Source of the DNA: Lachnoclostridium sp. An76
GTDB taxonomy: Bacteria > Bacillota > Clostridia > Lachnospirales > Lachnospiraceae
Direction: 5' to 3'
Length of the DNA stretch: 64,000 nucleotides
Assembly: GCF_002161355.1 (NCBI RefSeq)
Contig: NZ_NFHL01000002.1
Span: 248,001 to 312,000 of the forward strand
Part shown: in pieces, positions 45,638 to 63,630 of the stretch
Layout: each line of letters starts with the position of its first letter
Position numbering within the stretch: position 1 is the stretch's first letter
Made by a program: the position numbers and the translations under genes
The notes under the pieces: generated by a model
What the model saw: only the letters and a program-made list of their open reading frames with translations
Told to the model about the DNA's origin: nothing
Database searches by the model: none

Positions 45638-48600
45638 TCATTTTCTGCGTCTGACGATCACACCTCCCGCCAGAAGCGCTGCCAGCGCCGCAGCCGCCGC
45701 AAGCGACCCGAGTGCTCCGACTGGAGCGCTGTCCCCGGTCGGCACTGCCCCCTTGTCAGCGGGATCATTTTTATCAGCATCAGGTTTCTCTGGCTGTGGA
45801 TCCGGGTCTTCCGGCGTTGGGTCCGGATCTTCAGGTGCCGGATCCGTCCCCTCCTCTGCCTTATCCTTCAGCACAACATTCACCGTCACGCCTTCTTCCG
45901 GCATGATAAATGTATATTCGGTCTCACTTACTTTCGTTACGGCCACATCACCGGATACCCCAGTGACCGTTACAGCCGCGATCTCTTTATCTGTATCCGT
46001 GACTTTGACTTTCACTGTCACAGTCTCTCCGGCCTTACTTTCCTGGGGGAGCGTGATCTCCGCCCCTTCTGTTGTCCCGGCTGTAACAGTAAAGGTTTCT
46101 TCCGGCTCTGGCTCGGGTTCCGGTTCTGGTTCCGGCTCCGGCTCCGGCTCAGGTTCCGGTTCCGGCTCTGGCTGGGCATCAAGCGCTGCCGTAAGCTCTG
46201 TGAGTGCCTGCCCGATCTCATCTTCTGTGGTGAGGAGATTGCCCTGCACTGCCCTTGCCTGCACGACTGCCTCGAAGAGCGCTCTGTCCGCCCCGTCCTC
46301 TGTCTCAAAGCCAAGGCCTTTTTCCGCGACGATCTGCTCTGCCTCCGCAAGCTTGTCCGCAAGCTCTGCCTTATCCGTGACTTCATAGATCATGAACTCC
46401 TGGATCATGTACCCTGACACAGAGTTGGACGAAATCCCCTGCATGCGGACGCAGCGCGCCTGCACCGGCTCTCCGTCAGCGGATATGATGCTGAGGAAAT
46501 CCTGGTTCCCGCGGATCTCTTTCCATGTTTCCCAGTTTTCCCCATCCTCTGAGATCTGGATGTCAAAGTCTTTGCCCTTTCCGCCGTATCTCCACTGGAT
46601 CTGTACCTCGCTGACATTCCTCATCTGGCCCAGGTCGATGTTCAGGGCGCTGTCCGTGCGGTTTCCTTTCCAGTAGGAATAAATGTCAGATGTGGACTCA
46701 TCCATCCGATCCGCCGGACTTGCCGCCTGTGCGAATCCATCCCCGTCCACTGCCTTAAATGCCACACGCACACGGCCGTCCGCATTGTCGTAAGCGGATG
46801 CGTCTCCCACGGTCCTGGAAATCCCGCCTGCATACGCATCCTGCGCTACGTTGATCTTCGAAGTATCCGATGTCCATGCATCTGTATAGTAGGCCGCCGC
46901 TTCTTCCGCGGAGAATGCCCTGTTATACACCTGGAGATCCGCGATCTCGCCGTGGAGCCCTTCCCCGATCTTCTCGAGCGGAAGCGGGAAGGACGAATAC
47001 ATGGATGTGACATTTCCCGGCGCCACTCCGTCCTGGTCGGATTTCTGCGACAGGAACGTCTGGAGCTGGCCGTTGATATACAGCTTTGTCCCCTGGAAGG
47101 TTCCCACGAGCATCACATTTACTTCTGTGCCGTCCGTGGGGACATTGTAGTTAAAATCTCTCGTAAAGTAATTCACGTTCGCGGAAAGACTGCCGTCTGC
47201 CGTCCCCGCGATCTGGAGCTGTCCGTCATAACCCGAGAACACGGAGGACGCCGTCGTATTCTGCTCTGCCTCCTCTGCATCGATGCGGACTGTAAACGCC
47301 GCTGTGTACGGATAGGACAGTGTCTTGAGCGGTGTGCTCAGCACGCCTCCGTCAAAGGTCAGCCAGCCGTCCCCGCTTACTGTCCCCGCTTTGCTCAGCG
47401 TGCCGTTATATCCATTCCCGCTGGTATCATAGACTGTCATGCCGTCTGACGAAAGATTGTCAAAATCATAGTCCAGCACAAGGGAGGTCCCGGAATCGAT
47501 CTCCATGGCGATCTCCGTGCCCGGTCCCTCTGCCAGCCGCGCTGCCCTCTGCTCGAATTCCTCGAAAGGCTCGCTCTCATCCGTGCCGCCCCATGTCTTT
47601 TCACTGACAATGGACACTGCGCGCAGCACTCTCTGGTTTACATCCCTCTCCGTCATCCCTTCCTGGCTCTGGTCACCCCAGATCACAGTCTTGGCTCCCA
47701 GAAGCCCCGGCTCGCCCAGGAGCGGATTGCTCCCGGTCCCCGGCGCCCCGTCCTGGAACATGGCAGGGTTCCACTCATTATAAACATATTCCGCGTTGGG
47801 CACATCGCGGTTCGTGCGCCCCGGATTTCCGTACATGTAGGCATCGCGGCAGTTGATCACCTCATAGCCTTCCCGGATCCTCTCCTTTGCATTTTCATAG
47901 CCGTGATACCAGACATCCAACTGATAATTTTCCTGGAGATCCACGCCTTCCAGGGCCGTCTCAGCGGTGGAGAACATTCCTTCCCCCGCACCCCACATAC
48001 GGATCTTGGTGTCTGCGCCAAGGTTGCCCTGGATCACCTGCCGCAGGCTGTCCGCGAAGTTTGCGAAAGCATCCCGGATCCCCGCTGTATTGTGATCCCA
48101 GTACTCATCCGCGCCGATGTGCACCACACTGCCGGAAATGACCGGGTCGCTGCCTTCTGTGTATTCATCCCAGAGTTCCTCCGCGAACCAGAGGGCTCTT
48201 TCCGAATTTTCGCCCACCAGGTCCATGAGCTCCGCCCCGCCGTTATTTCCGAGCCCGCCGGACGTATAACGGATACCGCCTTCCAGCTCGGGGATATTGT
48301 CCGGGTTCTCGTCCGCATACTCATTATAGAGCAGGGAGTGTCCGGGCAGATCCAGTTCCGTGATCATATTGATGCCCAGACCGCTGCACAGCTCGCGCAG
48401 CTCTCTCCATTCTTCTTTCGTATACTGCGGATTCCCCTGATAATCCTCATTGTTGAGATAATAATCCGCATTGATCAGATCCGACGGCACGCCCGCGTGT
48501 TTTACCCCGGATTCCAGGGACGGGAATCGGTCGCTCTCCAGCCGGTGGAATCCCACATGGTCCTCCACAGAGGCGCTGATATTCGCATTATCATTGTCAT

Positions 48601-50131
48601 TGACATGCAGGTGGTACTCATTGATCTTATACCAGAGCAGCACTTTCGCATAGTCGTGAAGCTGCTGCAGACGGTAAGGCGTGCGCGCCACGTCAAGCAT
48701 GACGCCTCTTACCTCATACGCCGGATAGTCCCTCGTGATCCCCTTTGGCACTGTGCGGTTTCCGTCCGCCTGGTACAGGATCTGCTCTGCCGTGATCGTT
48801 CCGTAGAGGCAGCCCGTATATGACGGAGCGTAGATCTTAAGGCCGCTGTCATCCGTCACCATGAGGTAGCCCTCACCGCCGACTCTGTATGTATCTTCAG
48901 CCTGTGATTCGATATAAATATCATCTGCTCCGGCAGCGTCCTCTGTCCCTGCCTGCACCGCCAGGTCCAGTCCTGTGATCTCAAGAAGGTCTGCCTTCAT
49001 GTTCGCAGCCACTGCCTCGATCCCTGCGCCCGCCGCGTCATTGTAGATGATCCTCGATGTCTCTTTCAGCTCGAAATCGCCGCTGTAGCCGTACCATTCC
49101 TGCAGGGAAGGGATGACCTCCGGCTTTCCGTTCGGCTCCGCTGTTTCCGGGAAATACGCCGCCGGATAGGCGGAACTGTTGTCCGGGACAGTGACCGCCA
49201 TGTTCTTCTCCGCATACTGCGACGGATCTGACTCGCTCTCCACGCGCACGATCACAGTGACGTCCCGGCTGCCGATATTAAAGCCGGTCAGGTTTCCGTC
49301 ATTGTCCACCACATTTTCCAGAGTGCTTCCCCTGACACTGATCCTCGCTCCCGGGACTTCTTTATCTACTGCCACCCTGCCGTCCGAGACTGCCAGGTCC
49401 GCTTCCGTGATCGAGCCGAGGACTGCGTTGACATCCACATCGACCGTATCGTCAAAGATCTCGATCTCGCGAAGGTTCACATTATTTCCCGGCGCCTGCG
49501 CGTTTACCTTTGTGACATAGACAAGGACATATCTCTGGATCTGAACACCTTCGTTCAGGGCGGGGGTTGTATCCGCTGTGATCGTGTCTGTATTCGCATC
49601 CGTGTCCGCGATATCCTGTCCTGGCCCGTTGACAGCAAACCCGTTGGACGACGGCCGGTCCACGGAGATGACTTCCGTCCATTCTCCGAGGTCCACAGAT
49701 GTGTCTGCCGGGTCAGCAGCCAGATCAGATGTCTGTGCTGTCAGGATCTTGTACTCCATGGGCCAGACTTTCATGTTATACCAGAGCTTGATCGATGTAA
49801 TGTCTGCCGGTTCTGCATCCGCTCCCCGGTCGATCTGGATCCACTGCGGAGTCTGGGCATCTTCGTCCCTGCCTGTATCCGGGGCTTGTCCCCAGTCTTT
49901 CATATCCGCTGAGTTCCATTGCTGGGTCTGGTCCTTCACGCCGTCAACGGTAAGTTCCGGTCCGGCGTTGTTCGCCGTCGATGATGCTATGACCTCTTTT
50001 CCAAGGACAATATTCTCGCCCACCGTCCCCGGAGCTGCCTCTGCCGTTTCTGCTCCCTGCAACGGCAATCCGGACGCAGTCATCGCTGCCGCCAGCAGGA
50101 AGGCAAAAAGCCTCTTTTTTCTCCTTTTCAT
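45638..50131 (-). CDS. Wall-anchored GH20 enzyme (beta-N-acetylhexosaminidase / lacto-N-biosidase-like)
   Basis: This is a 1497-residue secreted enzyme; ATG 50131 begins a signal peptide (MKRRKKRLFAFLLAAAMTAS). In order: a discoidin-like domain (about 40-225), an Ig-like domain, the GH20b domain (about 330-470) and the GH20 barrel with GVMLDVARTPY, WYKINEYHLHVND and the catalytic Asp675-Glu676 in VVHIGADEYW. A LamG domain (about 890-1110), a CBM32-like domain (WRYGGKGKDFDIQISED), a FIVAR-type helical bundle, a (PE)n spacer, a small beta domain and AVPTGDSAPV plus a membrane anchor follow. The GADEY active site and domain set resemble bifidobacterial lacto-N-biosidase, but GlcNAcase activity is equally possible. 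It lies directly downstream of rpoC, beyond that gene's terminator. Confidence 0.9.
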   Translation of the reverse strand: MKRRKKRLFAFLLAAAMTASGLPLQGAETAEAAPGTVGENIVLGKEVIASSTANNAGPELTVDGVKDQTQQWNSADMKDWGQAPDTGRDEDAQTPQWIQIDRGADAEPADITSIKLWYNMKVWPMEYKILTAQTSDLAADPADTSVDLGEWTEVISVDRPSSNGFAVNGPGQDIADTDANTDTITADTTPALNEGVQIQRYVLVYVTKVNAQAPGNNVNLREIEIFDDTVDVDVNAVLGSITEADLAVSDGRVAVDKEVPGARISVRGSTLENVVDNDGNLTGFNIGSRDVTVIVRVESESDPSQYAEKNMAVTVPDNSSAYPAAYFPETAEPNGKPEVIPSLQEWYGYSGDFELKETSRIIYNDAAGAGIEAVAANMKADLLEITGLDLAVQAGTEDAAGADDIYIESQAEDTYRVGGEGYLMVTDDSGLKIYAPSYTGCLYGTITAEQILYQADGNRTVPKGITRDYPAYEVRGVMLDVARTPYRLQQLHDYAKVLLWYKINEYHLHVNDNDNANISASVEDHVGFHRLESDRFPSLESGVKHAGVPSDLINADYYLNNEDYQGNPQYTKEEWRELRELCSGLGINMITELDLPGHSLLYNEYADENPDNIPELEGGIRYTSGGLGNNGGAELMDLVGENSERALWFAEELWDEYTEGSDPVISGSVVHIGADEYWDHNTAGIRDAFANFADSLRQVIQGNLGADTKIRMWGAGEGMFSTAETALEGVDLQENYQLDVWYHGYENAKERIREGYEVINCRDAYMYGNPGRTNRDVPNAEYVYNEWNPAMFQDGAPGTGSNPLLGEPGLLGAKTVIWGDQSQEGMTERDVNQRVLRAVSIVSEKTWGGTDESEPFEEFEQRAARLAEGPGTEIAMEIDSGTSLVLDYDFDNLSSDGMTVYDTSGNGYNGTLSKAGTVSGDGWLTFDGGVLSTPLKTLSYPYTAAFTVRIDAEEAEQNTTASSVFSGYDGQLQIAGTADGSLSANVNYFTRDFNYNVPTDGTEVNVMLVGTFQGTKLYINGQLQTFLSQKSDQDGVAPGNVTSMYSSFPLPLEKIGEGLHGEIADLQVYNRAFSAEEAAAYYTDAWTSDTSKINVAQDAYAGGISRTVGDASAYDNADGRVRVAFKAVDGDGFAQAASPADRMDESTSDIYSYWKGNRTDSALNIDLGQMRNVSEVQIQWRYGGKGKDFDIQISEDGENWETWKEIRGNQDFLSIISADGEPVQARCVRMQGISSNSVSGYMIQEFMIYEVTDKAELADKLAEAEQIVAEKGLGFETEDGADRALFEAVVQARAVQGNLLTTEDEIGQALTELTAALDAQPEPEPEPEPEPEPEPEPEPEPEPEETFTVTAGTTEGAEITLPQESKAGETVTVKVKVTDTDKEIAAVTVTGVSGDVAVTKVSETEYTFIMPEEGVTVNVVLKDKAEEGTDPAPEDPDPTPEDPDPQPEKPDADKNDPADKGAVPTGDSAPVGALGSLAAAAALAALLAGGVIVRRRK

Positions 50132-50222
50132 AAACTCTTTCCTTTCTCCCACTTTTTTGTAGTTTTTTACATATATCTGTTTTATCATATCAAATTTTTG
50201 TGGATATTTAAATTATTTTTTC

Positions 50223-50320: not shown

Positions 50321-53300
50321 TTATTCCCCATCGTGACTGATCTCGTCTCCGCCTGCCTCTTCCTCGCTGTCCGCGTCTTCCGCACTGTCTGCTGCTTCCG
50401 CATATTCCTTACCCTCCACTGGCGTATCATTCTTCTCTGATACCGCAGTGTCAGCTGCTGTCTCTTCTGACGCTGTCAGCTCTGTCCCATCTTCCGGTAT
50501 TTCCGCATCTTCCTCATCCAGGTTCAGCTCGATCAGCTCTTCCATATGCGCATCTGTGTTGAGCGCCACATCGCGGTATTTCTTCATACCCGTACCAGCC
50601 GGGATATGCTTACCGATGATGACATTCTCTTTCAGGCCGACCAGATGGTCTACCTTACCCTTGATCGCTGCCTCTGTCAGGACTTTTGTCGTCTCCTGGA
50701 AGGACGCCGCTGACAGGAAGGAATCCGTAGCAAGGGATGCCTTTGTGATACCGAGCATGATCTGCTCGCCGGCAGCAGGAGCTTTGCCCTCTGCCTCCAT
50801 CTGCTCATTGACCTCGTTGAACTCAAGCACATCCACCATGGTGCCCGGCAGGAAGTCTGTGTCTCCCTTCTCCTCGATGCGGACTTTCTTCAGCATCTGG
50901 CGCACGATGACCTCGATATGCTTATCATTGATATCAACACCCTGCAGGCGGTATACGCGCTGCACTTCCTGGAGCATGTAGTCCTGCACTGCGCGCAGTC
51001 CCTTGATCTTCAGGATATCATGCGGGTTTACGCTACCTTCGGTCAGCTCGTCGCCGGCCTCCAGCATTGCGCCGTCCTGCACCTTGATGCGGGATCCGTA
51101 CGGGATGAGGTAAGCTTTGGACTCGCCTGTCTCGTCGTTTGTGACGATGACCTCGCGCTTCTTCTTTGTATCAGAGATTGTCGCTTTTCCGGCAAACTCT
51201 GTGATGATCGCAAGTCCCTTCGGCTTTCTCGCCTCGAAGAGCTCCTCCACACGGGGAAGACCCTGCGTGATGTCATCGCCGGCAACACCGCCGGTATGGA
51301 AGGTACGCATGGTAAGCTGTGTACCCGGCTCACCGATGGACTGTGCGGCAACGATACCGACAGCCTCGCCGACCTGTACCGCCTCGCCTGTCGCCATGTT
51401 GGCTCCATAGCACTTCGCGCACACACCGTTCTTGCACTTACACGTAAGGATCGTACGGATCTTCACTCTCTGAAGCGGCTCGCCGTTCTCATCCACGCCT
51501 CTCTTTGTCACGCGCTCCGCGCGGTGCGGAGTGATCATGTGGTTCGCCTTCACGAGTACATTGCCGTCTTTGTCCTTGATATCTTCACACGCGAAGCGCC
51601 CTGTGATACGCTCCTGGAGACTCTCGATCTCCTCGTTGCCGTCCATGAATGCATGCACATACATTCCCGGGATCTCCTGGCCCGGCTCCACACAGTCGGA
51701 ATCGTGGATGATCAGCTCCTGGGATACGTCGACAAGACGTCTTGTCAGGTATCCGGAGTCCGCTGTACGCAGAGCCGTATCGGACAAACCTTTACGCGCT
51801 CCGTGGGCGGACATGAAGTATTCCAGTACATCCAGACCTTCACGGAAGTTGGACTTGATCGGCAGCTCAATGGTACGTCCTGTCGTATCCGCCATCAGTC
51901 CGCGCATGCCGGCAAGCTGTTTGATCTGCTTGTCAGAACCGCGGGCTCCGGAGTCCGCCATCATGAAGATATTATTATATTTATCCAGACCGGAAAGCAG
52001 GGCCTCTGTCAGCTTGTCATCGGTTGCTTTCCATGTCTCTACGACTTCTTTGTAACGCTCTTCCTCTGTGATGAGACCGCGCTTGTAGTTCTTTGTGATC
52101 CGGTCCACAGTGTTCTGGGCTTCCTCGATCATCTGCGGTTTCTGCGGCGGCACAGTCATATCAGAGATGGATACGGTCATTGCCGCTCTCGTGGAGAACT
52201 TGTATCCGATCGCCTTTACATCATCGAGCACTTCCGCTGTCTGCGTCGCACCGTGTGTATTGATGACCTTCTCGAGGATCTGCTTTAACTGCTTCTTTCC
52301 TACGTGGAAATCGATCTCCAGAAGGAGTTCATTTCCCTCCACTTCTCTGTCTACGAAGCCAAGATCCTGCGGGATGATCTCATTGAACAGGAGCCTTCCC
52401 AGTGTCGCGTCGATCACACCTGTCTTCACCGTGCCGTCCGGCATTGTCCTGGACACACGCACTTTAATCTTGGAGTGGAGCGTGATATAGCCGTTCTCGT
52501 AAGCAAGGATCGCCTCGCTGGTGCTCTTGAAGAACATGCCCTCGCCCTTTGCCCCGGGTCTCTCCTGTGTCAGATAGTAGATACCGAGGACCATATCCTG
52601 TGACGGAACAGCCACCGGACCGCCGTCTGACGGTTTCAGCAGGTTGTTCGGGGAGAGCAGCAGGAAACGGCACTCAGCCTGCGCTTCCTGGGACAGCGGT
52701 ACATGGACCGCCATCTGGTCTCCGTCGAAGTCCGCGTTGTACGCTGTACATACGAGGGGATGCAGCTTGATCGCCTTACCCTCTACAAGGATGGGCTCGA
52801 AAGCCTGGATACCGAGTCTGTGCAGCGTGGGGGCGCGGTTGAGCATTACCGGGTGCTCTTTGATCACTTCCTCGAGCACATCCCACACCTCCGGCTGGAG
52901 CCTCTCGACCATTTTCTTTGCATTCTTTATATTATGAGCCGTACCGTTTGCCACCAGTTCTTTCATAACGAATGGCTTGAACAGCTCGATCGCCATCTCT
53001 TTCGGCAGACCGCACTGATAGATCTTCAGCTCCGGTCCTACGACGATAACGGAACGCCCCGAGTAGTCGACACGTTTTCCGAGCAGGTTCTGACGGAAAC
53101 GTCCGGACTTACCTTTCAGCATATCTGAAAGGGATTTCAGTGCACGGTTTCCGGGTCCTGTGACCGGACGTCCGCGGCGGCCGTTGTCGATCAGGGCGTC
53201 CACCGCCTCCTGGAGCATACGTTTCTCGTTGCGCACGATAATGTCCGGCGCGCCCAGCTCCAGCAGTCTTTTCAGACGGTTGTTCCTGTTGATGATCCTT

Positions 53301-54100
53301 CTGTACAGGTCGTTCAGGTCAGACGTAGCGAAACGTCCGCCGTCCAGCTGTACCATCGGACGCAGGTCCGGCGGGATCACCGGGATCGCTGTCAGGATCA
53401 TCCACTCCGGGCGGTTGCCTGACTCGCGGAATGCCTCCACGACCTCAAGACGCTTCACGATCCTCGCGCGCTTCTGGCCTGTCGCATTCTCCAGCGTGCC
53501 CTGGAGTTCATCATATTCCTTGTCAAGATCGATCGCCTCGAGGAGCTCCTTGACAGCCTCAGCGCCCATTCCTACGCGGAATGCGCCGCTGCCCCATTTC
53601 TCCTTCTGCTCCTGGTACTCAGCCTCGGAGAGGATCTGCTTGTTCTGCAGGTCTGTCTCCCCTTTGTCGAGCACGATATAAGAAGCAAAATACAGCACCC
53701 TCTCCAGGGTCCTCGGAGAGATGTCAAGGATCAGACCCATGCGGCTCGGGATCCCTTTGAAATACCAGATATGGGATACCGGGGCCGCCAGGGCGATATG
53801 CCCCATACGCTCGCGGCGTACGCTGGACTTTGTGACTTCTACGCCGCACCGGTCGCAGACAACGCCTTTGTAGCGGATCTTCTTATATTTCCCGCAGTGG
53901 CACTCCCAGTCTTTGCTGGGCCCGAAGATCCTCTCGCAGAACAGACCGTCTTTTTCAGGCTTTAATGTCCTGTAGTTGATCGTCTCCGGCTTTGTCACTT
54001 CGCCTCTGGACCACTCCATGATTTTTTCAGGTGAAGCCAGTCCGATCTTGATCGCATCAAATGTTAACGGCTGATATTGTTGTTCATTATTATTTGGCAT
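50321..54100 (-). CDS. rpoC: DNA-directed RNA polymerase subunit beta'
   Basis: This is a 1259-residue subunit holding the catalytic Mg2+. The zinc-binding N-terminus has [23 protein letters not shown] (about 70-92), the active-site loop [12 protein letters not shown] near 449, the trigger-loop region after [11 protein letters not shown], and the second zinc site [11 protein letters not shown]. It ends with a strongly acidic tail ([17 protein letters not shown]) typical of Lachnospiraceae. It starts 17 bases after rpoB and is transcribed with it. Confidence 0.99.
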
Positions 54101-54117
54101 AAATATGGCTCCTCCTA

Positions 54118-57100
54118 TTAATCTTCATCATAACCGGAAAACTCCTCGAACTCAATGGCATCGAGATCGCTGTCATCCGGCTCCTCGTCCTCAGGTTCCA
54201 CATCTTCAAGCTCTTCGCCCACAAACTCCTGCTCTGTGAATCCGTGGTCGCCAAACGATTCATTCTCATCACGGTATTTCCTGTCGCCCTCGATAATGTG
54301 GCGCAGGTCCGTCTCGCCGTAGTCCACGTTCTCCATGATCTCCACTTCTGTGTTGTCGTCACGCAGCACGCGCACATCCAGGGCAAGTGACTGGAGCTCT
54401 TTTAAGAGCACCTTGAAGGATTCCGGGATACCAGGTTCCGGGATATTTTCACCCTTGATGATCGCTTCGTATGTCTTCACACGTCCGATCACGTCGTCGG
54501 ATTTCACTGTCAGGATCTCCTGCAGTGTGTAGGATGCGCCGTAGGCCTCGAGAGCCCACACCTCCATCTCTCCGAAACGCTGTCCGCCGAACTGTGCTTT
54601 ACCGCCCAGCGGCTGCTGTGTGACAAGAGAATACGGACCGGTAGAACGTGCGTGGATCTTATCGTCTACAAGGTGGTGCAGTTTGAGGTAATGCATGTGT
54701 CCGATCGTTACCGGGCTGTCGAAGAACTCTCCGGTACGGCCGTCGCGCAGGCGCACCTTACCGTCTCTGGAGAGCGGCACGCCCTTCCACAGCGCTCTGT
54801 GATCCCTGTTGTCAGACAGGTACTGGAGCACCTCCGGGAGCAGTTCCTCTCCGTGCTTCTTCTCAAATTCTTCCCACTCAAGATTTACATAATCATTTGC
54901 CAGATCGAGGGTATCCATGATATCCACCTCGTTGGCGCCGTCGAATACCGGCGTGGAGATATTGAATCCCAGCGCTTTCGCCGCAAGGCTCAAGTGGATC
55001 TCAAGCACCTGCCCGATATTCATACGGGACGGCACTCCCAGCGGGTTCAGCACGATATCCAGCGGACGTCCGTTCGGCAGGAACGGCATATCCTCCACCG
55101 GAAGCACGCGGGAAACAACACCCTTGTTACCATGGCGTCCTGCCATCTTATCTCCGACGGAGATCTTTCTCTTCTGCGCGATGTAGATGCGCACTGCCTG
55201 GTTTACGCCCGGAGACAGCTCATCACCGTTCTCCCTTGTGAACACTTTGGCATCCACAACAATACCATACTCACCGTGGGGCACTTTCAGGGAAGTATCC
55301 CTTACCTCGCGCGCCTTCTCGCCGAAGATCGCGCGGAGGAGCCTCTCCTCTGCGGTCAGCTCTGTCTCTCCCTTCGGAGTCACCTTTCCGACAAGGATAT
55401 CCCCTGCGCGCACTTCTGCGCCGATCCGGATGATTCCTCTCTCATCCAGGTCTTTCAGGGCATCGTCGCCCACGCCCGGGATATCTCTTGTGATCTCCTC
55501 TGGCCCGAGCTTTGTATCTCTCGCCTCTGCCTCATATTCCTCGATATGGACAGAAGTATATACATCATCCTGTACCAGTCTCTCGCTTAAGAGGACCGCA
55601 TCCTCGTAGTTGTAGCCTTCCCATGTCATGAAGCCGATGAGCGGGTTCTTGCCAAGCGCCATCTCGCCGCCGGATGTGGACGGACCGTCTGCGATGACCT
55701 GTCCCTCTTCCACTACGTCGCCCTTGTTGACGATCGGTCTCTGGTTGTAGCAGTTGCTCTGGTTGCTCCGCTGGAACTTTGTCAGCCTGTATGACTGCTT
55801 TGTCCCGTCCTCATGACGGATCACGATCTCCTTGGATGTAGAACTCTCGACAGTTCCCGCCTTCTCTGCAACCACGCACACACCGGAGTCAACGGCAGCC
55901 TTCACTTCCATACCTGTTCCCACGACCGGAGCTTCCGTCGTAAGGAGCGGCACTGCCTGACGCTGCATGTTGGATCCCATGAGGGCACGGTTCGCATCGT
56001 CGTTCTGCAGGAACGGGATCAGCGCCGTAGCCACGGAGAACACCATCTTCGGGGACACATCCATGTAATCAAATTTATTTCTCTCGTACTCCTGTGTCTC
56101 TTCGCGGTAACGACCGGACACATTTTTATTTACGAAATGCCCTTCCTCATCCAGAGGCGTATTCGCCTGAGCCACATGGTAGTTATCTTCCTCGTCCGCT
56201 GTCATGTAGACAACCTCGTCCGTTACGCGCGGGTTCTGCGGATCAGACTTATCGACCTTGCGGTACGGCGCCTCGACAAACCCGTACTGGTTGATCCTCG
56301 CATAGCATGCCAGCGAGTTGATCAGACCGATGTTCGGTCCTTCAGGCGTCTCGATGGGGCACATCCTTCCATAGTGGGAATAATGTACGTCGCGGACCTC
56401 GAATCCGGCACGGTCCCTTGACAGACCGCCGGGGCCCAGTGCGGAGAGACGTCTCTTGTGGGTCAGCTCGCCCAGCGGGTTGTTCTGGTCCATGAACTGG
56501 GACAGCTGGGAGGAACCGAAGAATTCCTTCACTGCCGCGGTCACCGGCTTGATGTTGATCAGAGACTGCGGGGAGATCCCTTCCTGGTCCTGTGTGGTCA
56601 TGCGCTCGCGCACGACTCTCTCCAGTCTGGACAGACCGATCCTGTACTGGTTCTGGAGCAGCTCGCCCACCGCGCGGATACGGCGGTTGCCCAGATGGTC
56701 GATGTCATCGTCATTTCCCATGCCATACTCAAGATGCATGTTATAGTTAATGGAAGCAAAGATGTCTTCCTTTGTGATATGCTTCGGGATCAGGTCGTGG
56801 ATGTCGCGGCGGATCATCCGCTTCATCTCATCGATGTCTCCCGCGGACTCCTCGATGATCCCTGCCAGCACCGGATAGTATACCTGCTCTGTCACTCCGA
56901 CTTCCTTCGGGTCGATGTCAACGACAGCCTGGAAGTCTACCATCATATTGGAAAGGATCTTGATGTTCCTGGACTCGTCCTCTCCCTCTACCCACAGATA
57001 CGGCGCGGCAGAATTCTGGATCGCGTCCGCGATCTCGCGTGTGATCTTTGTCCCTTTCTCAGCGACAACCTCTCCTGTCAGCGGGCTTACTACATCCTCC

Positions 57101-57984
57101 GCAAGGATCTGCCCGTTGACACGGTTCCTGAGCATAAGCTTCTTATTGAATTTATAGCGTCCTACCTTTGCCAGGTCATAACGTCTCGGGTCAAAGAACA
57201 TGCTGTTGATCAGGCTCTCCGCGCTGTCAACTGCCAGCGGCTCGCCCGGACGGATCTTTTTGTACAGCTCTAACAGACCCTCCTGATAATTCTCAGCAGT
57301 GTCCTTCCCAAAGCTTGCGAGGATCTTAGGCTCCTCACCGAATAAATCTATGATCTCTGCGTTCGTCCCGATACCGAGGGCACGGATCAGCACTGTGATC
57401 GGCACCTTCCTCGTACGGTCTACACGCACATAAAAAACGTCATTGGAGTCAGTCTCATACTCAAGCCATGCTCCTCTGTTCGGGATCACTGTCGCCGAAT
57501 AGAGCTTCTTTCCAAGCTTATCGTGGGCGATGCCATAGTAGATGCCCGGAGAACGCACAAGCTGGCTGACGATGACACGCTCAGCCCCGTTGATGACAAA
57601 TGTACCTGTCTTTGTCATCAGAGGGAGGTCTCCCATGAAGATCTCATGTTCATTGATCTCATCAGTCTCTTTATTGTGGAGCCTTACCCTGACTTTCAGG
57701 GGTGCCGCATAAGTTGCGTCGCGTTCTTTGCACTCATCGATCGTATATTTCACATCTTTTTCGCAAAGTGTAAAGTCCACAAATTCCAGACTCAGATGTC
57801 CGCTGTAATCAGCGATCGGGGAAATATCGTCGAACACCTCTTTGAGTCCTTCGTCCAGAAACCACTGGTAGGAATCCTTCTGAACTTCAATGAGATTTGG
57901 CATTTCCAATACTTCCTTCTGCCTGGAATAGCTCATGCGGAAGCTTTTTCCGGTTTTAATGGGACGGATCCTGTTTTTCTCCAT
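54118..57984 (-). CDS. rpoB: DNA-directed RNA polymerase subunit beta
   Basis: This is a 1288-residue core polymerase subunit. The rifampicin-binding cluster reads [20 protein letters not shown] and [12 protein letters not shown], with the usual Asp, His and Ser residues, a wild-type-looking pattern. The flap and C-terminal motifs ([20 protein letters not shown]) are intact, followed by an acidic tail. AAGGAG precedes ATG 57984. Unlike the common rplJ-rplL-rpoB order with a short gap, rpoB is separated here from rplL by 5.9 kb containing one large gene and two palindromic repeats. It has its own promoter at 58128-58157. Confidence 0.99.
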
Positions 57985-58127: not shown

Positions 58128-58157
58128 ACTATATCACACCAAACTTTTAATTGTCAA
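58128..58157 (-). promoter_or_regulatory. Dedicated rpoBC promoter
   Basis: On the minus strand TTGACA (58152-58157), 18 bases, TATAGT (58128-58133). The start near 58121 gives a leader of about 137 bases before rpoB, with short stem-loops (ACTGC/GCAGT, TTCAG/CTGAA) but no clear terminator. It sits 10 bases from palindromic repeat copy 2. Confidence 0.8.
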
Positions 58158-58260: not shown

Positions 58261-61200
58261 TTATCTCACTCTCCTGAACCTGCCTGCGAGCACCGCGATC
58301 ACCGCCGCGCCTGCTGCCAGGAATACATACAGCATGATCGGCGCCGCATCTCCGGTCTGTACTGCTGCCGGAGCATTGCCGTCCGCGCCGTCATCGGAGC
58401 CATCCCCGGTATCGCCGCCAGGGGTATCACTGTCCTCGCCGCCGTCGCCGGTTTCACCTTCCTCGATCGCTTTCTCCACTGCATCGATCGCTGCCTGAAG
58501 GTCCGCGGTCATCGCCTTAGCCTCATCGGCGCTGATATTCTCCGCGCCTTTCGCCAGCATCTCGTCCGCTGCCGCGAGTACATCCCCCGCGGAGCCGAAC
58601 TGCTCGTCCGTCGCTTTTTCTCCCAGCGCCCGGAGCTCGTCCGCCGCTGCCTGGAGCTGTGCGAGCGTCTCTGCATCCGCCCGGAGCACAAGCCCTTCTA
58701 TCGCTGTATCCAGTGTTTCTTTTGCGGCGTCAACCGCTGTCTGGTCTGCCGCGTCATTGTCCAGCACTTCCTTTGCCGCTGCCATCGCCCTCTCAAGCGC
58801 TGCGGTGCTGTCTGCTGTATAAACGTTTCCGTCAGCGAGCTTCTCCGCCGCAGCGTCATAGCTTTCCTGAAGTGCGGAGTTGTCTGCCGGCATCCTTACC
58901 TGGATGATAAAGGACGCTCCCGCGCTGTCTGTCGTGTCGACCGTGAAGCTTCCGTCTTCATTTACTGTCACTCCCTCATCCGCAGAAAGGACTTCAACAT
59001 AACCGTCTGTCAGTGTCAGGCCGATCTGCACATCTTTCTGCTTCGGATCGCTGATGGCGATGGTCATTACGCCGTCCTTTGTCTGCGTATAGATGGATGC
59101 AGATGCGTCCACGGCAATGCCGTTTACACTTTCGCCGCCTGTGCCGTCTGTCGGCCATACGTTCATCGCGAACACGCCGCTCTGTGTATCCTTCACAGCC
59201 TGCACATCCACATCGTTCCTTACGTTTTCGACCGTGCTGTTTTCAGCAAATGCCGCTGTCTCTTCCTCTGTGCTTCCCGGAAGCAGGACATAGCCGTAAG
59301 TTCCATTGTCCACACTGTCTCCGTGGTTGATGCCCATCTTGAAGAATGTATTTGTGTACTCTTTATCGCTTACGAAATACTCATTGATATCTGTGTATTT
59401 CCCGCTGCGTGTCTCCTGTGCGAGGTAGATGTCCGCATCGTCTAAATACACATATCCGATGTCGTTCCCTTCTCCTGTACCTTTGAAGAATGCATAGTCT
59501 CCGGCTTTTGCCTGCTTTTCCTCTTCTGTCTTATCCCACGCCTCGCCGTTGTAGCTGATGGCATTGTCATCGCCGGTCATCATGCGGTTCTCAACCGTTG
59601 TCTCGATCGCTGCGTCCGTGGTCCCGGTAATGCCCGCGCCCAGAGCCACGATCTTTCCGTCAAGGAAGAACCAGGACTTCTGCGCTTTGAGATCCATATC
59701 CTGCCCCAGGTTTGTCGTATTGTAGTACATAGCGGCTGTGCCGTTTGTCCCGTCGGTCGCTCCTCCTACCCATGACTGCGGAGAAGTCTTGTTATACCCG
59801 GAACCGTCCGTCAGCTCTTTTGTATCCACTGTCGTTCCCGGCAGGCGGTACGGATCTACTGTCGGCCAGTAGCCTTCTCCGTACTGCTTCAGGTCATTGT
59901 TATAGATATACAGGACTCCGTCGCCTGTATGCCAGCCTTTCTTATTTTCCGTATTGCCGAACTCATAATTGTAGATCCTGGATGAGTACATGGCAAGACC
60001 GGCTGTATAATCTTCATTTACCTGTACGACTCTGTCCATGGAGCCGTACACTTTCATGCCCTCGTATTTTTCCGCTGTGACAGAGTCATCGTTCATGATC
60101 TCTTTTGCTCCGAGGAGCGCGTCAAAGTCTCTCGCATTTCCATAGAAATCATACGCGCCGTCACTCTCCTCCAGCCAGTACTTGACCGCTGACTTAAACG
60201 CGGAGCTGTACTCTTCCGGCGCGCCTGACGCCAGCAGCATGATATTGGAGATGGTCTCAGACCCTGCCGCGAATTCCGTTGTGAACGGGTTCGTTCCCGG
60301 CGCCCTTGAAATACTCCTTCCATTGACCATGGACATCATCTGTCCTTTGTGCATCAGCGGGATATATCCGTTGATCACAGTTTCATATACATTGTTGATC
60401 CTCTCGTCCGTGATATCAAAGGATGTGCCCGCGATAATGGACTGGATCCTGCCCACGCCTTTCAGGAGCTCATTGCCGTAGCTTCCGGTATAGGCATGTT
60501 TTGTATGCTGGATCACAGATCCGTCCGCATACAGGCCGTCGCCTGAGGTCACCAGTTTCATGACATCAGGTACCTCAGTCTTCACAAGGTTCATTCTCTC
60601 ATCATTCTTAGCGATGATCGCGCTTCCCAGCACGGAGAGTCCGATATCTGTGCGGTTGGCTCCTGTCGCCGTGTAGCTCGGCCACTGCTTGCTCGGTTTC
60701 TCCGCATACCCTTCGATACTCTTTACCGCGGGCTCGATCTCGCTGTAATCCACATAATCACTGATGACCATCAGGGTGTCAACAAGCGGCTGCGTACATC
60801 CGATCTGCCAGTCCCACCAGTTTCCGGTAGAATAGCTTCCGTTATAGTTTTTCTCTGTTACCATGAACTGGATGGCATCTACGATATCACCCAGCAGCTC
60901 TTTGTTTTCATAGAGCGCGCTTCCCTTTACACCAAAGGCAAGGGCAAGCTTTTTGATCTTTGTGAACTGTGTCGTATAGTCAGCGCTCGTAGTATCGCTC
61001 GCGACTTTCTCCCACAGATACTCTCTGTCTCCGCTCTTATTGAGCGACTCCCAGAGTTCCTCGCCTTCATCAGAGATTTTCCGGACATATGCCTTGATAT
61101 CCTCATCTTCCATGTCCAGGTCATCCCCGCCTGTCACGCGTGTCTGCCAGCGGTCCATCATCGTGTCATACTCTGTATTGTAATCCGGAGCATTTACATG

Positions 61201-63630
61201 AAGGGTGATCTCGCCTTTTACATCGGCATCATCCGCGCTCTGCACTGTGATCACCGCTGTTCCCTCGGACACTGCCTTTACAAGCCCATCCTCGTTCACT
61301 GTGGCAACATCCTCATCAGAGCTGCTCCATTCCACTTCCACATCCGGGTTGACCGCATTAGCCGGATATACAGAATACTCAAGGAATCTCGCCTCTCTTG
61401 ATGTGATATCTTTCTCTTCCTCGTCAAAGACAAATCTGGAAACTTCAATCTCTCCTTCCACTGCCTGGATTTCCATCTCTGCCTTGATCTGCGGATCTGC
61501 CTGGTCGGCAACAGTGATCACTGCCGTACCTTCTTTCAGCGCTTCCAGCGTTCCCTCATCATCCACAGAGATCACGTCTTCATTGCTGCTGGAATAGGTC
61601 AGCGGATTATTGCCCGCCAGCTCCGGAAGGATCTTCACTTCCAGTTTGTAGGTATCGCCGACGGAGATCGCGTCTGTCGGATTTGTGATCTCAATGCTCT
61701 CTGTGTCAAAGCTGTGGTAAACTTCCAGCTCATAGATACTTGTGCTGTACTGTTTACCGTTTGAAGCATGGTTCCACATCTTATTCTGCTGATATTTTAC
61801 ATATCTTGCTTCCTGCATCGGGAAGGTGATCTGTTTTGTGATCGTGGGACCGTGGTCTTCCCCATCCTTCTCTTCATAAACAGTCGTCCATTCTTTTCCG
61901 TCCTCAGAGATCTGGACATTCCAGTCAGTTGTCGCTGCATGGAAGTAGATCAGGATCTGTGAGATCTCTTTCACTTCTCCCAGGTCTACTGTAAGCCACT
62001 GCTCGTCCGTCTTCGCAGCAGACCACCTTGTCCCCTGGTCTCCGTCCACTGCCATCTCGCCGACAAACTGTGGATAAACCCAGCTTCCGTCTGAGTTTTT
62101 GTCTCCCTCCACGCCGGAATAGGTCACTGTTTTCCCGGCTGCAAGATTAAATTCTTTCAGACCGTCTATTGCAGCGAGCACTGCCCTTGCAGCGTCATCC
62201 ACTGTACCCTGGTCCGCCGGGTTCTCCATAACAGCTTTTCCCGCATCTACCGCGCTCTGTAGCGCCGCGTAACTCTCTGCTGTATAATCGTCTCCGCTGA
62301 TATCCTCTGCTTCTCCGATCACAGCTCTGAGCCATTCTGTGGATACCTGAGGCTCGTCAAGGAACTTCAGCTCCGCCATGAACAGATTGTGGTCCGACAG
62401 CCCGGACTCATCCATTTCCACGGACTCAATGCTCAGGTTGCGGGTCACAAAGATATTGTCAATGGTATTGACCTTCATTGTCTCGTCTACGCCATTGAAC
62501 GTATCATACCATACACCCTCATAGCCGTTCGCCATGTCCATGGACTCCAGCATGGTATAAAACTCGCTCTGGTACTGATCCGCATTGAAATCGCCCACAA
62601 CGATCTTGTATTCTGTATCGTCCTCTGCAAGTGCCTCTTTCAGCTGTGTGAACTGCACCACACGCACTTCCGGGTTCTCATAGCTGAAATGTGTATTGTA
62701 GAAAGCGATCTCTCTGCCTTCCTTTTCAAACACCGAGCGCTGGAACACTCTGTCCTCGCTGTCCGGTCCCGCTGCTTCCGTATCCAGAAGCGTCTCGCTG
62801 TTTTCCGTAAAGTCATATTTTGCCACAGTGGCAATCCCATACTCACCGCCGCCGTAATCGATCGCCTTGGAGAAATATCCCGCGGGATATGTATCTCCCT
62901 GGAAAGCTTTGAGCATATCGTAGTCATTCCTGTCCGTGTTCATATCCACTTCCCGAAGACCTACGACTTCCAGATTATACTTCTCTGTCAGTTCCCGCAG
63001 CTCATCCACATCCGGCTTCTTATTCGCCGCAATGTTGAATGTACCTACACGCAGGGTATCCGGCGCAGTCTCATAATCCTTGCTCTCCGTAACTGTCAGT
63101 TCGATGATACTGCTTCCATAATACTGCCCGTTTCCGGAATGCTTCCACATGCTGTGCTGCTGGTACTGCACATATCTTGCAGAAGCCCCATCCACGTCAA
63201 AAGTCTTTGTCACAGTATCGCCCTGGCTCCCATCTGTCACTTTCGCCACAGAGGTATACTCCTGCCCGTCCTCGGATACGAGGATCTCGTACTCCGGCGA
63301 CTCTGCATGGAAATCGATCGTGATCTCGCCGAGCTCATACACAGCTCCCAAATCCACGGTCAGCCACTGCTCGTCTGTCTTCGCAGCGGACCATCTGGTA
63401 TCAGACTTGCCGTCAACCGCAGACTCACCCACAAACTGAGGGTATTTCCACTCGCCGTTGACTTTGTCTCCCTCCACGCCGGAATAAGTCACCGTCTTAT
63501 TCAGCGCCAGGTTGGAGGAACTGCCCGCGCTGCCGCCTGCCGCCAGAACGACCGGCTGCGCCTGAGCCACGCACATGGCAAAGGCAAGAAGCAGCGCTGA
63601 CACGCTTTTCCAAAATCCTTTCTTTTTCAT
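58261..63630 (-). CDS. Wall-anchored fusion of EEP nuclease/phosphatase domain and PL8 hyaluronate lyase
   Basis: This is a 1789-residue secreted protein with signal peptide 1-30. A CBM32/discoidin domain (about 38-182) is followed by an endonuclease/exonuclease/phosphatase domain (191-425) with the full motif set: GTFNI, Glu227 in GLREVD, NTHFS (His314), GDFNAD (Asp347, Asn349) and SDHN (Asp413, His414). After a helical FIVAR-like linker comes a second CBM32 (about 495-640) and two Big_2 domains (about 643-812). The PL8 lyase domain (about 820-1500) has GNWWDWQIG, Asn992 in TGANRTD, and His1042/Tyr1051 in QHTKHAYTGSYG, matching the Asn-His-Tyr set of pneumococcal hyaluronate lyase. Helical repeats, a Gly/Asp spacer, VQTGDAAP and an anchor close it. 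It is inserted between rplL and rpoB. Confidence 0.92.
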   Translation of the reverse strand: MKKKGFWKSVSALLLAFAMCVAQAQPVVLAAGGSAGSSSNLALNKTVTYSGVEGDKVNGEWKYPQFVGESAVDGKSDTRWSAAKTDEQWLTVDLGAVYELGEITIDFHAESPEYEILVSEDGQEYTSVAKVTDGSQGDTVTKTFDVDGASARYVQYQQHSMWKHSGNGQYYGSSIIELTVTESKDYETAPDTLRVGTFNIAANKKPDVDELRELTEKYNLEVVGLREVDMNTDRNDYDMLKAFQGDTYPAGYFSKAIDYGGGEYGIATVAKYDFTENSETLLDTEAAGPDSEDRVFQRSVFEKEGREIAFYNTHFSYENPEVRVVQFTQLKEALAEDDTEYKIVVGDFNADQYQSEFYTMLESMDMANGYEGVWYDTFNGVDETMKVNTIDNIFVTRNLSIESVEMDESGLSDHNLFMAELKFLDEPQVSTEWLRAVIGEAEDISGDDYTAESYAALQSAVDAGKAVMENPADQGTVDDAARAVLAAIDGLKEFNLAAGKTVTYSGVEGDKNSDGSWVYPQFVGEMAVDGDQGTRWSAAKTDEQWLTVDLGEVKEISQILIYFHAATTDWNVQISEDGKEWTTVYEEKDGEDHGPTITKQITFPMQEARYVKYQQNKMWNHASNGKQYSTSIYELEVYHSFDTESIEITNPTDAISVGDTYKLEVKILPELAGNNPLTYSSSNEDVISVDDEGTLEALKEGTAVITVADQADPQIKAEMEIQAVEGEIEVSRFVFDEEEKDITSREARFLEYSVYPANAVNPDVEVEWSSSDEDVATVNEDGLVKAVSEGTAVITVQSADDADVKGEITLHVNAPDYNTEYDTMMDRWQTRVTGGDDLDMEDEDIKAYVRKISDEGEELWESLNKSGDREYLWEKVASDTTSADYTTQFTKIKKLALAFGVKGSALYENKELLGDIVDAIQFMVTEKNYNGSYSTGNWWDWQIGCTQPLVDTLMVISDYVDYSEIEPAVKSIEGYAEKPSKQWPSYTATGANRTDIGLSVLGSAIIAKNDERMNLVKTEVPDVMKLVTSGDGLYADGSVIQHTKHAYTGSYGNELLKGVGRIQSIIAGTSFDITDERINNVYETVINGYIPLMHKGQMMSMVNGRSISRAPGTNPFTTEFAAGSETISNIMLLASGAPEEYSSAFKSAVKYWLEESDGAYDFYGNARDFDALLGAKEIMNDDSVTAEKYEGMKVYGSMDRVVQVNEDYTAGLAMYSSRIYNYEFGNTENKKGWHTGDGVLYIYNNDLKQYGEGYWPTVDPYRLPGTTVDTKELTDGSGYNKTSPQSWVGGATDGTNGTAAMYYNTTNLGQDMDLKAQKSWFFLDGKIVALGAGITGTTDAAIETTVENRMMTGDDNAISYNGEAWDKTEEEKQAKAGDYAFFKGTGEGNDIGYVYLDDADIYLAQETRSGKYTDINEYFVSDKEYTNTFFKMGINHGDSVDNGTYGYVLLPGSTEEETAAFAENSTVENVRNDVDVQAVKDTQSGVFAMNVWPTDGTGGESVNGIAVDASASIYTQTKDGVMTIAISDPKQKDVQIGLTLTDGYVEVLSADEGVTVNEDGSFTVDTTDSAGASFIIQVRMPADNSALQESYDAAAEKLADGNVYTADSTAALERAMAAAKEVLDNDAADQTAVDAAKETLDTAIEGLVLRADAETLAQLQAAADELRALGEKATDEQFGSAGDVLAAADEMLAKGAENISADEAKAMTADLQAAIDAVEKAIEEGETGDGGEDSDTPGGDTGDGSDDGADGNAPAAVQTGDAAPIMLYVFLAAGAAVIAVLAGRFRRVR

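What the first reader, a model, noticed from the sequence alone, without database searches (positions are those of the whole stretch)
58261..63630. Single protein combining an EEP nuclease/phosphatase domain with a PL8 hyaluronate lyase
The sequence shows a complete EEP motif set (GLREVD, NTHFS, GDFNAD, SDHN) in residues 191-425 and a complete PL8 catalytic set (Asn992, His1042, Tyr1051, WW patch) in one wall-anchored polypeptide with two CBM32 and two Big_2 domains. Both activities attack host matrix or debris polymers: PL8 cleaves hyaluronan/chondroitin, and the EEP domain could be an extracellular DNase or a phospholipid/sphingomyelin phosphodiesterase. I do not know this fusion as a described enzyme. 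It suggests joint degradation of glycosaminoglycan and DNA (for example in mucus or neutrophil traps), or release of phosphate alongside sugar.
Basis: partly seen in the sequence, partly recalled or inferred. Interest (0 to 1): 0.85.

Follow-up and report, generated by a model that had tools for sequence, protein, structure and literature searches.

The report
Glycan-cutting lyase fused to phosphoesterase domain
A chicken-gut bacterium carries one large surface protein that joins a lyase for host sugar polymers to a metal-dependent phosphate-cutting domain; the pairing is real and kept in related species, but what the second domain cuts is not known.

Summary
One 1,789-aa frame (58261-63630, minus) has a signal peptide, CBM32, an EEP domain (191-425), a FIVAR-like linker, a second CBM32, two Big_2, a complete PL8 lyase (819-1580), FIVAR and a C-terminal anchor. 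Two other Mediterraneibacter assemblies carry the same fusion directly upstream of rpoB, so it is no artefact. The EEP is under purifying selection (dN/dS 0.057-0.124; PL8 0.054-0.082) and keeps all nine expected catalytic residues. The backbone matches Enterococcus faecalis HylA (45% in PL8), not other Lachnospiraceae PL8s; HylA showed no hyaluronan cleavage in print, so 'hyaluronate lyase' is unproven here. The EEP looks like an added module. Its only near relatives (45-49%) are fused to GH16 or LamG domains in one other genome; the next ones are ordinary stand-alone EEP proteins, and weaker ones end phage tail fibres. I favour a phosphoesterase on glycan-borne phosphate over DNase or sphingomyelinase, but only modestly; none is excluded. 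New variant of a known kind.

The parts
58261..63630 (-). whole gene, 1,789 aa
   Evidence: homologues L033 and L034/L035
63538..63630 (-). signal peptide, residues 1-31 (cleavage site by eye)
   Evidence: sequence
63076..63510 (-). CBM32 (F5/8 type C) copy a, residues 41-185
   Evidence: Pfam; 56% to the CBM32 of L140
62356..63060 (-). EEP domain, residues 191-425; expected catalytic set N199 E227 Y264 H314 D347 N349 D391 D413 H414 (roles recalled)
   Evidence: Pfam; all nine residues kept in 7 of 7 rows of A2
62146..62343 (-). FIVAR-like linker, residues 430-495 (limits by eye)
61711..62145 (-). CBM32 copy b, residues 496-640, 58% identical to copy a
61186..61695 (-). two Big_2 domains, within residues 646-815
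58891..61176 (-). PL8 lyase, residues 819-1580 (N992, H1042, Y1051, R1105, R1109)
58690..58878 (-). FIVAR, residues 1585-1647
58264..58359 (-). putative sortase/wall anchor: QTGD 1758, hydrophobic stretch, RRVR
   Evidence: sequence
58128..58157 (-). sigma-70-like promoter (TTGACA-18-TATAGT, 11 of 12) between this gene and rpoB
   Evidence: a consensus match only
50321..57984 (-). rpoB-rpoC directly downstream (context; names by sequence, recalled)

Best explanation
A secreted, probably wall-anchored enzyme of a chicken-gut Mediterraneibacter lineage. Two CBM32 modules hold it on a host or digesta glycan. The PL8 domain cleaves a uronic-acid polymer, most likely a glycosaminoglycan, by beta-elimination. 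The EEP domain is an added divalent-metal-dependent phosphoesterase that removes or cleaves phosphate mono- or diesters carried by the same glycan or its matrix, so that the lyase or later enzymes can proceed, or so that phosphate is won. The gene arose from a HylA-type lyase (CBM32-Big2-PL8-FIVAR-anchor) by insertion of an EEP-FIVAR-CBM32 unit. Shown: the fusion, its conservation and place, selection on both domains, intact catalytic residues, near relatives in glycan-enzyme fusions. Inferred: activity of either domain, wall anchoring, glycan phosphate as target, the order of events.
For: Domains and residues. Same fusion in L033 and in L034/L035, whose contig ends overlap by 131 identical bases, directly upstream of rpoB. 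dN/dS against L033: EEP 0.057, PL8 0.054, CBM32a 0.097, C-tail 0.54; against L034: EEP 0.124, first 255 codons of PL8 0.055. HylA-type backbone: PL8 45%, CBM32 56%, no EEP; tree 98/98. EEP relatives at 45-49% identity fused to LamG+GH16+FIVAR and to LamG+FIVAR, both in genome G141. Phage relatives: 8 of 17 records named tail fibre or tail protein; 5 of 7 proteins tested have a tail-fibre or tailspike N-terminal domain before the EEP; eight of nine catalytic positions kept in all 8 phage proteins aligned. The genome has two GH88 genes, one near heparinase II/III and PTS EIIC/EIID genes, the other next to UxaC.
Against: No structure and no assay. After the G141 pair, the best-scoring relatives are not glycan fusions: stand-alone or membrane-type EEP frames of 236-747 aa score 75-114 bits with the A3 profile, and Pfam sees no glycan domain in those scanned; the phage tail proteins score only 27-53 bits. 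Two of seven phage proteins tested carry no recognised tail domain. Closest solved relatives include sphingomyelinases. No phosphorylated glycan target for a PL8 user is known to me; the xylose-2-phosphate of the proteoglycan linkage region is only a thought.
Confidence: 0.38

Rival explanations
1. The EEP is an extracellular DNase: the protein degrades glycosaminoglycan and DNA together in mucus, shed-cell debris or neutrophil traps.
For: The EEP fold holds many nucleases (recalled). Streptococcal surface nucleases exist: SpnAi/SpnA with a C-terminal nuclease domain (PMC7564053, two passages; their wall anchoring is recalled) and the S. sanguinis cell wall-anchored nuclease (PMC4118848, search listing). 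Weak ExoIII-type model matches for two homologues, 17-18 bits at best; tyrosyl-DNA phosphodiesterase at E 0.0085.
Against: NF033681 (ExeM/NucH DNase) gives no match to this gene at E<=1 while 9 of 14 controls ring. No DNase I in the PDB profile lists. The two near relatives sit in glycan-directed architectures.
Confidence: 0.27
2. The EEP is a phospholipid or sphingomyelin phosphodiesterase acting on shed epithelial membranes next to the matrix lyase.
For: Profile matches to beta-hemolysin and sphingomyelinase C chains, E 7e-8 to 3e-2 and 3e-10 to 1e-4; TIGR03395 at 9e-4.
Against: TIGR03395 scores 18.8 bits against a cut-off of 248.2; the match covers the middle of the domain only.
Confidence: 0.18
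3. The EEP is a binding module that has lost or does not use its activity.
For: No activity is shown; the domain lies between two CBM32 copies.
Against: All nine catalytic positions kept in 7 of 7 rows; dN/dS 0.057-0.124.
Confidence: 0.08
4. Assembly or frame artefact joining two genes.
For: G000 is a draft of 26 contigs.
Against: Two further assemblies, 87% and 95% identical in the EEP, carry EEP and PL8 in one frame.
Confidence: 0.01

Closest known systems
Enterococcus faecalis HylA (EF3023)
   Same: CBM32/discoidin-Big2-PL8-FIVAR order; 45% identity in PL8, 56% in CBM32 (L140; taken as HylA from its architecture and its 36.4% identity to the HylB-type L139, where PMC11238560 gives 36%)
   Different: HylA has no EEP and one CBM32
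Enterococcus faecalis HylB (EF0818)
   Same: PL8, 40% identity (L139); NCBIfam HylB model 737 bits
   Different: No CBM32, Big2, anchor or EEP; the 737 bits miss the model's 1350 cut-off
Bacterial EEP sphingomyelinases (beta-hemolysin, sphingomyelinase C)
   Same: EEP core; beta-hemolysin tops the five-row profile list
   Different: Partial match; far below the curated family cut-off
EEP mannosyl-6-phosphatase (4c1r) and 3g6s
   Same: EEP; 3g6s shares NTHF, GDFN, ID-IFV and SDHN active-site motifs (alignment; 4c1r listed only)
   Different: Low scores; separate proteins of 267-290 aa
YafD-like EEP family (NCBIfam PRK05421)
   Same: Best NCBIfam match of the EEP, over nearly the whole domain
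   Different: 32.1 bits against a cut-off of 144; the YafD name is recalled
EEP tail fibres of Citrobacter phages CR8 and CR44b (gp17), Cronobacter phage B1, Escherichia phage BEK2, Salmonella phage Se-J
   Same: EEP appended to a surface-directed protein, catalytic positions largely kept
   Different: About 25% identity for CR8 and CR44b, 32-52 bits with the profile, less than stand-alone EEPs
SpnA-type surface nucleases of streptococci
   Same: Surface protein with a C-terminal nuclease domain (PMC7564053, passages)
   Different: Sequence not compared here; no glycan lyase known to me

Membership tests
Polysaccharide lyase family 8 | all three Pfam PL8 domains over cut-off | tested here: met
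   342.5, 241.8, 50.9 bits against 24, 27, 22
Polysaccharide lyase family 8 | Asn/His/Tyr plus Arg catalytic set (recalled) | tested here: met
   N992, H1042, Y1051, R1105, R1109 align with the same residues of xanthan lyase 1j0m
Hyaluronate lyase HylB (NF053732) | curated equivalog cut-off | tested here: not met
   737 bits against 1350
HylA-type lyase | nearest PL8 clade and backbone order | tested here: met
   HylA identity of L140 inferred, not by accession
EEP superfamily (PF03372) | Pfam cut-off over the whole profile | tested here: met
   47.7 bits against 24.5, profile 1-225 of 225
EEP superfamily (PF03372) | metal and catalytic residues | tested here: met
   nine positions, 7 of 7 rows; their roles recalled from EEP enzymes
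EEP superfamily (PF03372) | formed metal site in a structure | not testable with these tools
   structure prediction switched off
ExeM/NucH secreted DNase (NF033681) | model match | tested here: not met
   no match to this gene at E<=1; the only match in the genome lies on contig C20
Sphingomyelinase (TIGR03395) | curated cut-off | tested here: not met
   18.8 bits against 248.2
Sortase-anchored surface protein | sorting motif, hydrophobic stretch, basic end | tested here: inconclusive
   QTGD, not LPxTG; sortase genes not searched

The most novel reading that the evidence does not exclude
Some EEP domains work as glycan phosphoesterases: modules that cut phosphate esters of complex polysaccharides. 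Gut Lachnospiraceae attach them to PL8 and GH16 enzymes, and phages of several families attach them to tail fibres in place of a classical depolymerase.
Probability: 0.28. Interest if true: 0.8.

Novelty: new variant of a known kind. Interest (0 to 1): 0.52.

Why it matters
A lyase and a phosphoesterase in one surface protein suggest that some glycans met in the gut carry phosphate that must be dealt with during depolymerisation. It gives a handle on the unknown substrate of HylA-type PL8 enzymes. It also draws attention to EEP domains at the end of phage tail fibres, whose substrates can be tested on known O-antigens.

Tried and rejected
PDB rank as a guide to PL8 specificity: xanthan lyase is the best hit for this protein, but a xanthan lyase is also best for the two other Lachnospiraceae PL8s tried, so it says little. 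Artefact: rejected. The fusion on plasmids: 0 of 369 matching plasmid records cover 80% of the protein. Viral contigs: the scan with the EEP alone confirmed no relative; scans with alignments found five loci and four, the four lying on contigs that are among the five. Plasmid EEPs: 41 records, all under 60% identity; the two opened are stand-alone EEPs. Literature: searches gave no paper, (mannosyl-6-phosphatase) none; the listings showed nothing on this fusion.

Limits: genome searches drew samples (391 class, 397 family, 398 phylum genomes); EEP-PL8 fusions outside the phylum, for example in Bacilli chromosomes, were not searched. A blastp test with this EEP at 1e-4 found it in 0 of 14 other PL8 loci (L036-L049), some partial; a very different EEP could be missed. 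The PL8 tree left out L039, L045, L046 (split or partial) and the fragments L034, L035; L139 is flagged for odd composition and L047 for a long branch. dS against L033 is 1.1-1.4 in the main domains, so those ratios are rough.

Full report
OBSERVATION. The gene at 58261-63630 (-) is one open frame of 1,789 aa. Pfam finds two CBM32, EEP (profile 1-225 of 225), two Big_2, the three PL8 domains and two FIVAR stretches, each over its curated cut-off. The anchor is QTGD, a hydrophobic stretch and RRVR, not LPxTG.

IS IT REAL. The EEP was found in 4 of 58 genomes of the genus at E<=0.001: the window's own, two close matches (G349, 87%; G352, 95%) and one weak 30% match in a 385-aa frame (G340). PL8 was found in 6 of 58. 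In both close matches the EEP and PL8 share one frame. In G352 the gene is split between two contigs, one holding CBM32-EEP-CBM32-Big2 and the first 255 residues of PL8, the other the rest; their ends share 131 identical bases. Contigs of the same lengths appear under names in the GTDB set: Candidatus Mediterraneibacter tabaqchaliae and stercorigallinarum MAGs. In all three genomes the gene ends just upstream of rpoB. In the window's genome rplL (named by its sequence, recalled) lies on the other side, so the gene interrupts the usual rplJL-rpoBC order; in the other two the contigs do not reach that far. Of 30 rpoB loci held from the genus (51 of 58 genomes matched), 22 have rplL 251-504 bases upstream of rpoB, 3 have the fusion, 4 end at a contig edge and 1 (G348, L123) has another gene there.

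SELECTION. Against L033, dN/dS is 0.057 for the EEP, 0.054 for PL8, 0.097 and 0.085 for the CBM32 copies, 0.092 for Big_2 and 0.54 for the C-tail; dS is 1.1-1.4 in these and so near saturation. Against L034 (dS 0.19 in the EEP) the EEP has 0.124, about twice the 0.055 of the first 255 codons of PL8; against L035 the rest of PL8 has 0.082. Both enzyme domains are under purifying selection, the PL8 more strongly in the closer pair.

THE PL8. NCBIfam's HylB model reaches 737 bits, below its 1350 cut-off. The best PDB hits are xanthan lyases, but so they are for the two other Lachnospiraceae PL8s tried. In a tree of 15 PL8 rows the fused PL8 (window, L033) groups with an E. faecalis protein (98/98) and then with HylB (100/100), apart from 11 other Lachnospiraceae rows; three split or partial loci were left out. 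That E. faecalis protein (L140; deposited as a phage contig, without annotation) has CBM32-Big2-PL8-FIVAR order and 36.4% identity to the HylB-type L139. PMC11238560 (abstract, sections 5 and 8, passages) gives this architecture and a 36% identity to HylB for HylA, so I take L140 as HylA; it is not verified by accession. That paper found that HylB cleaves hyaluronan and chondroitin sulfate, while no HylA construct cleaved hyaluronan and the only phenotype of HylA was a slight fall in heparin; a later passage still credits either enzyme with a modest effect of added hyaluronan on NF-kB. So calling the fused PL8 a hyaluronate lyase goes beyond the evidence.

THE EEP AS AN ADDED MODULE. L140 has one CBM32 and no EEP. 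The fusion has two CBM32 copies, 58% identical, on both sides of the EEP and a FIVAR-like linker. The simplest history is insertion of an EEP-FIVAR-CBM32 unit into a HylA-type gene; this is inference. Of 14 other Lachnospiraceae PL8 loci, some partial, 0 have a detectable EEP of this kind in the frame.

WHAT THE EEP MIGHT DO. All nine expected catalytic positions are kept in 7 of 7 bacterial rows. In the family 9 of 299 genomes match at E<=0.001; apart from the own genome only G141 is close (49% and 45%): a 1,800-aa LamG-EEP-GH16-FIVAR protein and a 911-aa EEP-LamG-FIVAR protein. In the class 33 of 391 match. At 1e-20 with the five-row profile, 4 of 397 family genomes match (own, G141, G051, G211) and 5 of 398 phylum genomes (own and four with frames of 287-365 aa). 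These next relatives are not glycan fusions: frames of 236-747 aa score 75-114 bits with the profile, and Pfam sees EEP models and no carbohydrate domain in L094-L099 and L136-L138 or in the two plasmid proteins L151 and L152. Against solved structures the profiles meet beta-hemolysin, uncharacterised EEPs 3teb and 3g6s, mannosyl-6-phosphatase 4c1r, sphingomyelinase C and, last, tyrosyl-DNA phosphodiesterase, all weak. The best NCBIfam match is PRK05421, 32.1 bits against a cut-off of 144. The secreted DNase model NF033681 does not match this gene, with 9 of 14 controls ringing.

A LEAD FROM PHAGES. A tblastn of the EEP against 50,697 phage records gave 8 records: Citrobacter phages CR8 and CR44b (gene 17, tail fibre) and CrRp3, two records each, plus two faecal phage contigs; one of these (L150) holds three EEP frames in a row without tail domains. 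Starting from CR8 the group widens to 17 records, duplicates included: Citrobacter, Cronobacter, Escherichia, Proteus, Salmonella and Pseudomonas phages. Eight of 17 are named tail fibre or tail protein, 4 hypothetical, 5 without annotation. Pfam on seven of these proteins finds a T7 tail-fibre or tailspike N-terminal domain before the EEP in five (CR8, CR44b, B1, BEK2, Se-J) and the EEP alone in two (CrRp3, PM 116). Eight of nine catalytic positions are kept in all eight phage proteins aligned; Y264 is replaced in PM 116 and Se-J. Tail-fibre ends are expected to meet surface polysaccharide, so an EEP there most simply cuts phosphate esters of an O-antigen or capsule. I recall, without a call, that the related E. 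coli O152/C. rodentium O-antigen carries a sugar-1-phosphate. But the Citrobacter phage domains are about 25% identical to ours and the phage proteins score 27-53 bits with the profile, less than the stand-alone EEPs; this shows what EEP domains can be used for, not a special kinship.

THE ORGANISM. The genome has two GH88 genes. Near one lie heparinase II/III and PTS EIIC/EIID genes, and next to the other a glucuronate isomerase; a further neighbour tested there is unrelated (HD-CE/ATPase). A GH20 surface protein with CBM32 lies in the window on the other side of rpoBC. This suits a user of uronate oligosaccharides from host matrix.

VERDICT. A real, conserved domain combination, not met in the literature searches made here. 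It is a new variant of a known kind (HylA-type PL8 surface enzymes). The most likely single role of the EEP is a phosphoesterase on glycan-borne phosphate (0.38 for the whole account), ahead of DNase (0.27) and lipid phosphodiesterase (0.18).

Noticed in passing
L147 2275-3732, L149 1649-3109, L162 1679-3142, L163 1691-3208, L165 1952-3223: Phage tail fibres/tailspikes of several phage families end in an EEP domain with catalytic residues largely kept, a possible phosphoesterase class of depolymerase.
   Followed up: partly
window 58261-63630 and L051 5884-6276: A 5.4-kb surface-enzyme gene sits between rplL and rpoB, interrupting the rplJL-rpoBC order; in three species it lies directly upstream of rpoB.
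   Followed up: partly
L123 43-1191: In G348 another gene (a peptidase by eye, no call) lies upstream of rpoB where rplL is expected.
   Followed up: no
L092 3366-8765 and L093 7903-10635: Another Lachnospiraceae genome (G141) carries EEP fused to GH16 with LamG, and EEP with LamG/FIVAR.
   Followed up: partly
L150 2-2635: A faecal phage-labelled contig holds three EEP frames in a row, one with a secretion sorting domain match below cut-off.
   Followed up: no
L051 8616-9571 and 9680-15976: Beyond rplJ lie transposase-like fragments (IS30-like by eye) and a 2,098-aa multi-domain surface protein.
   Followed up: no
L145 5217-16414: Heparinase II/III, PTS EIIC/EIID, GH88 and a large CBM-heparinase surface protein together, like a glycosaminoglycan utilisation locus.
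   Followed up: partly
window 45638-50188: GH20 surface protein with CBM32 directly downstream of rpoC.
   Followed up: no
L146 (G000:C20:33000-46000): A 1,614-aa frame matches positions 31-113 of the NF033681 DNase model weakly.
   Followed up: no
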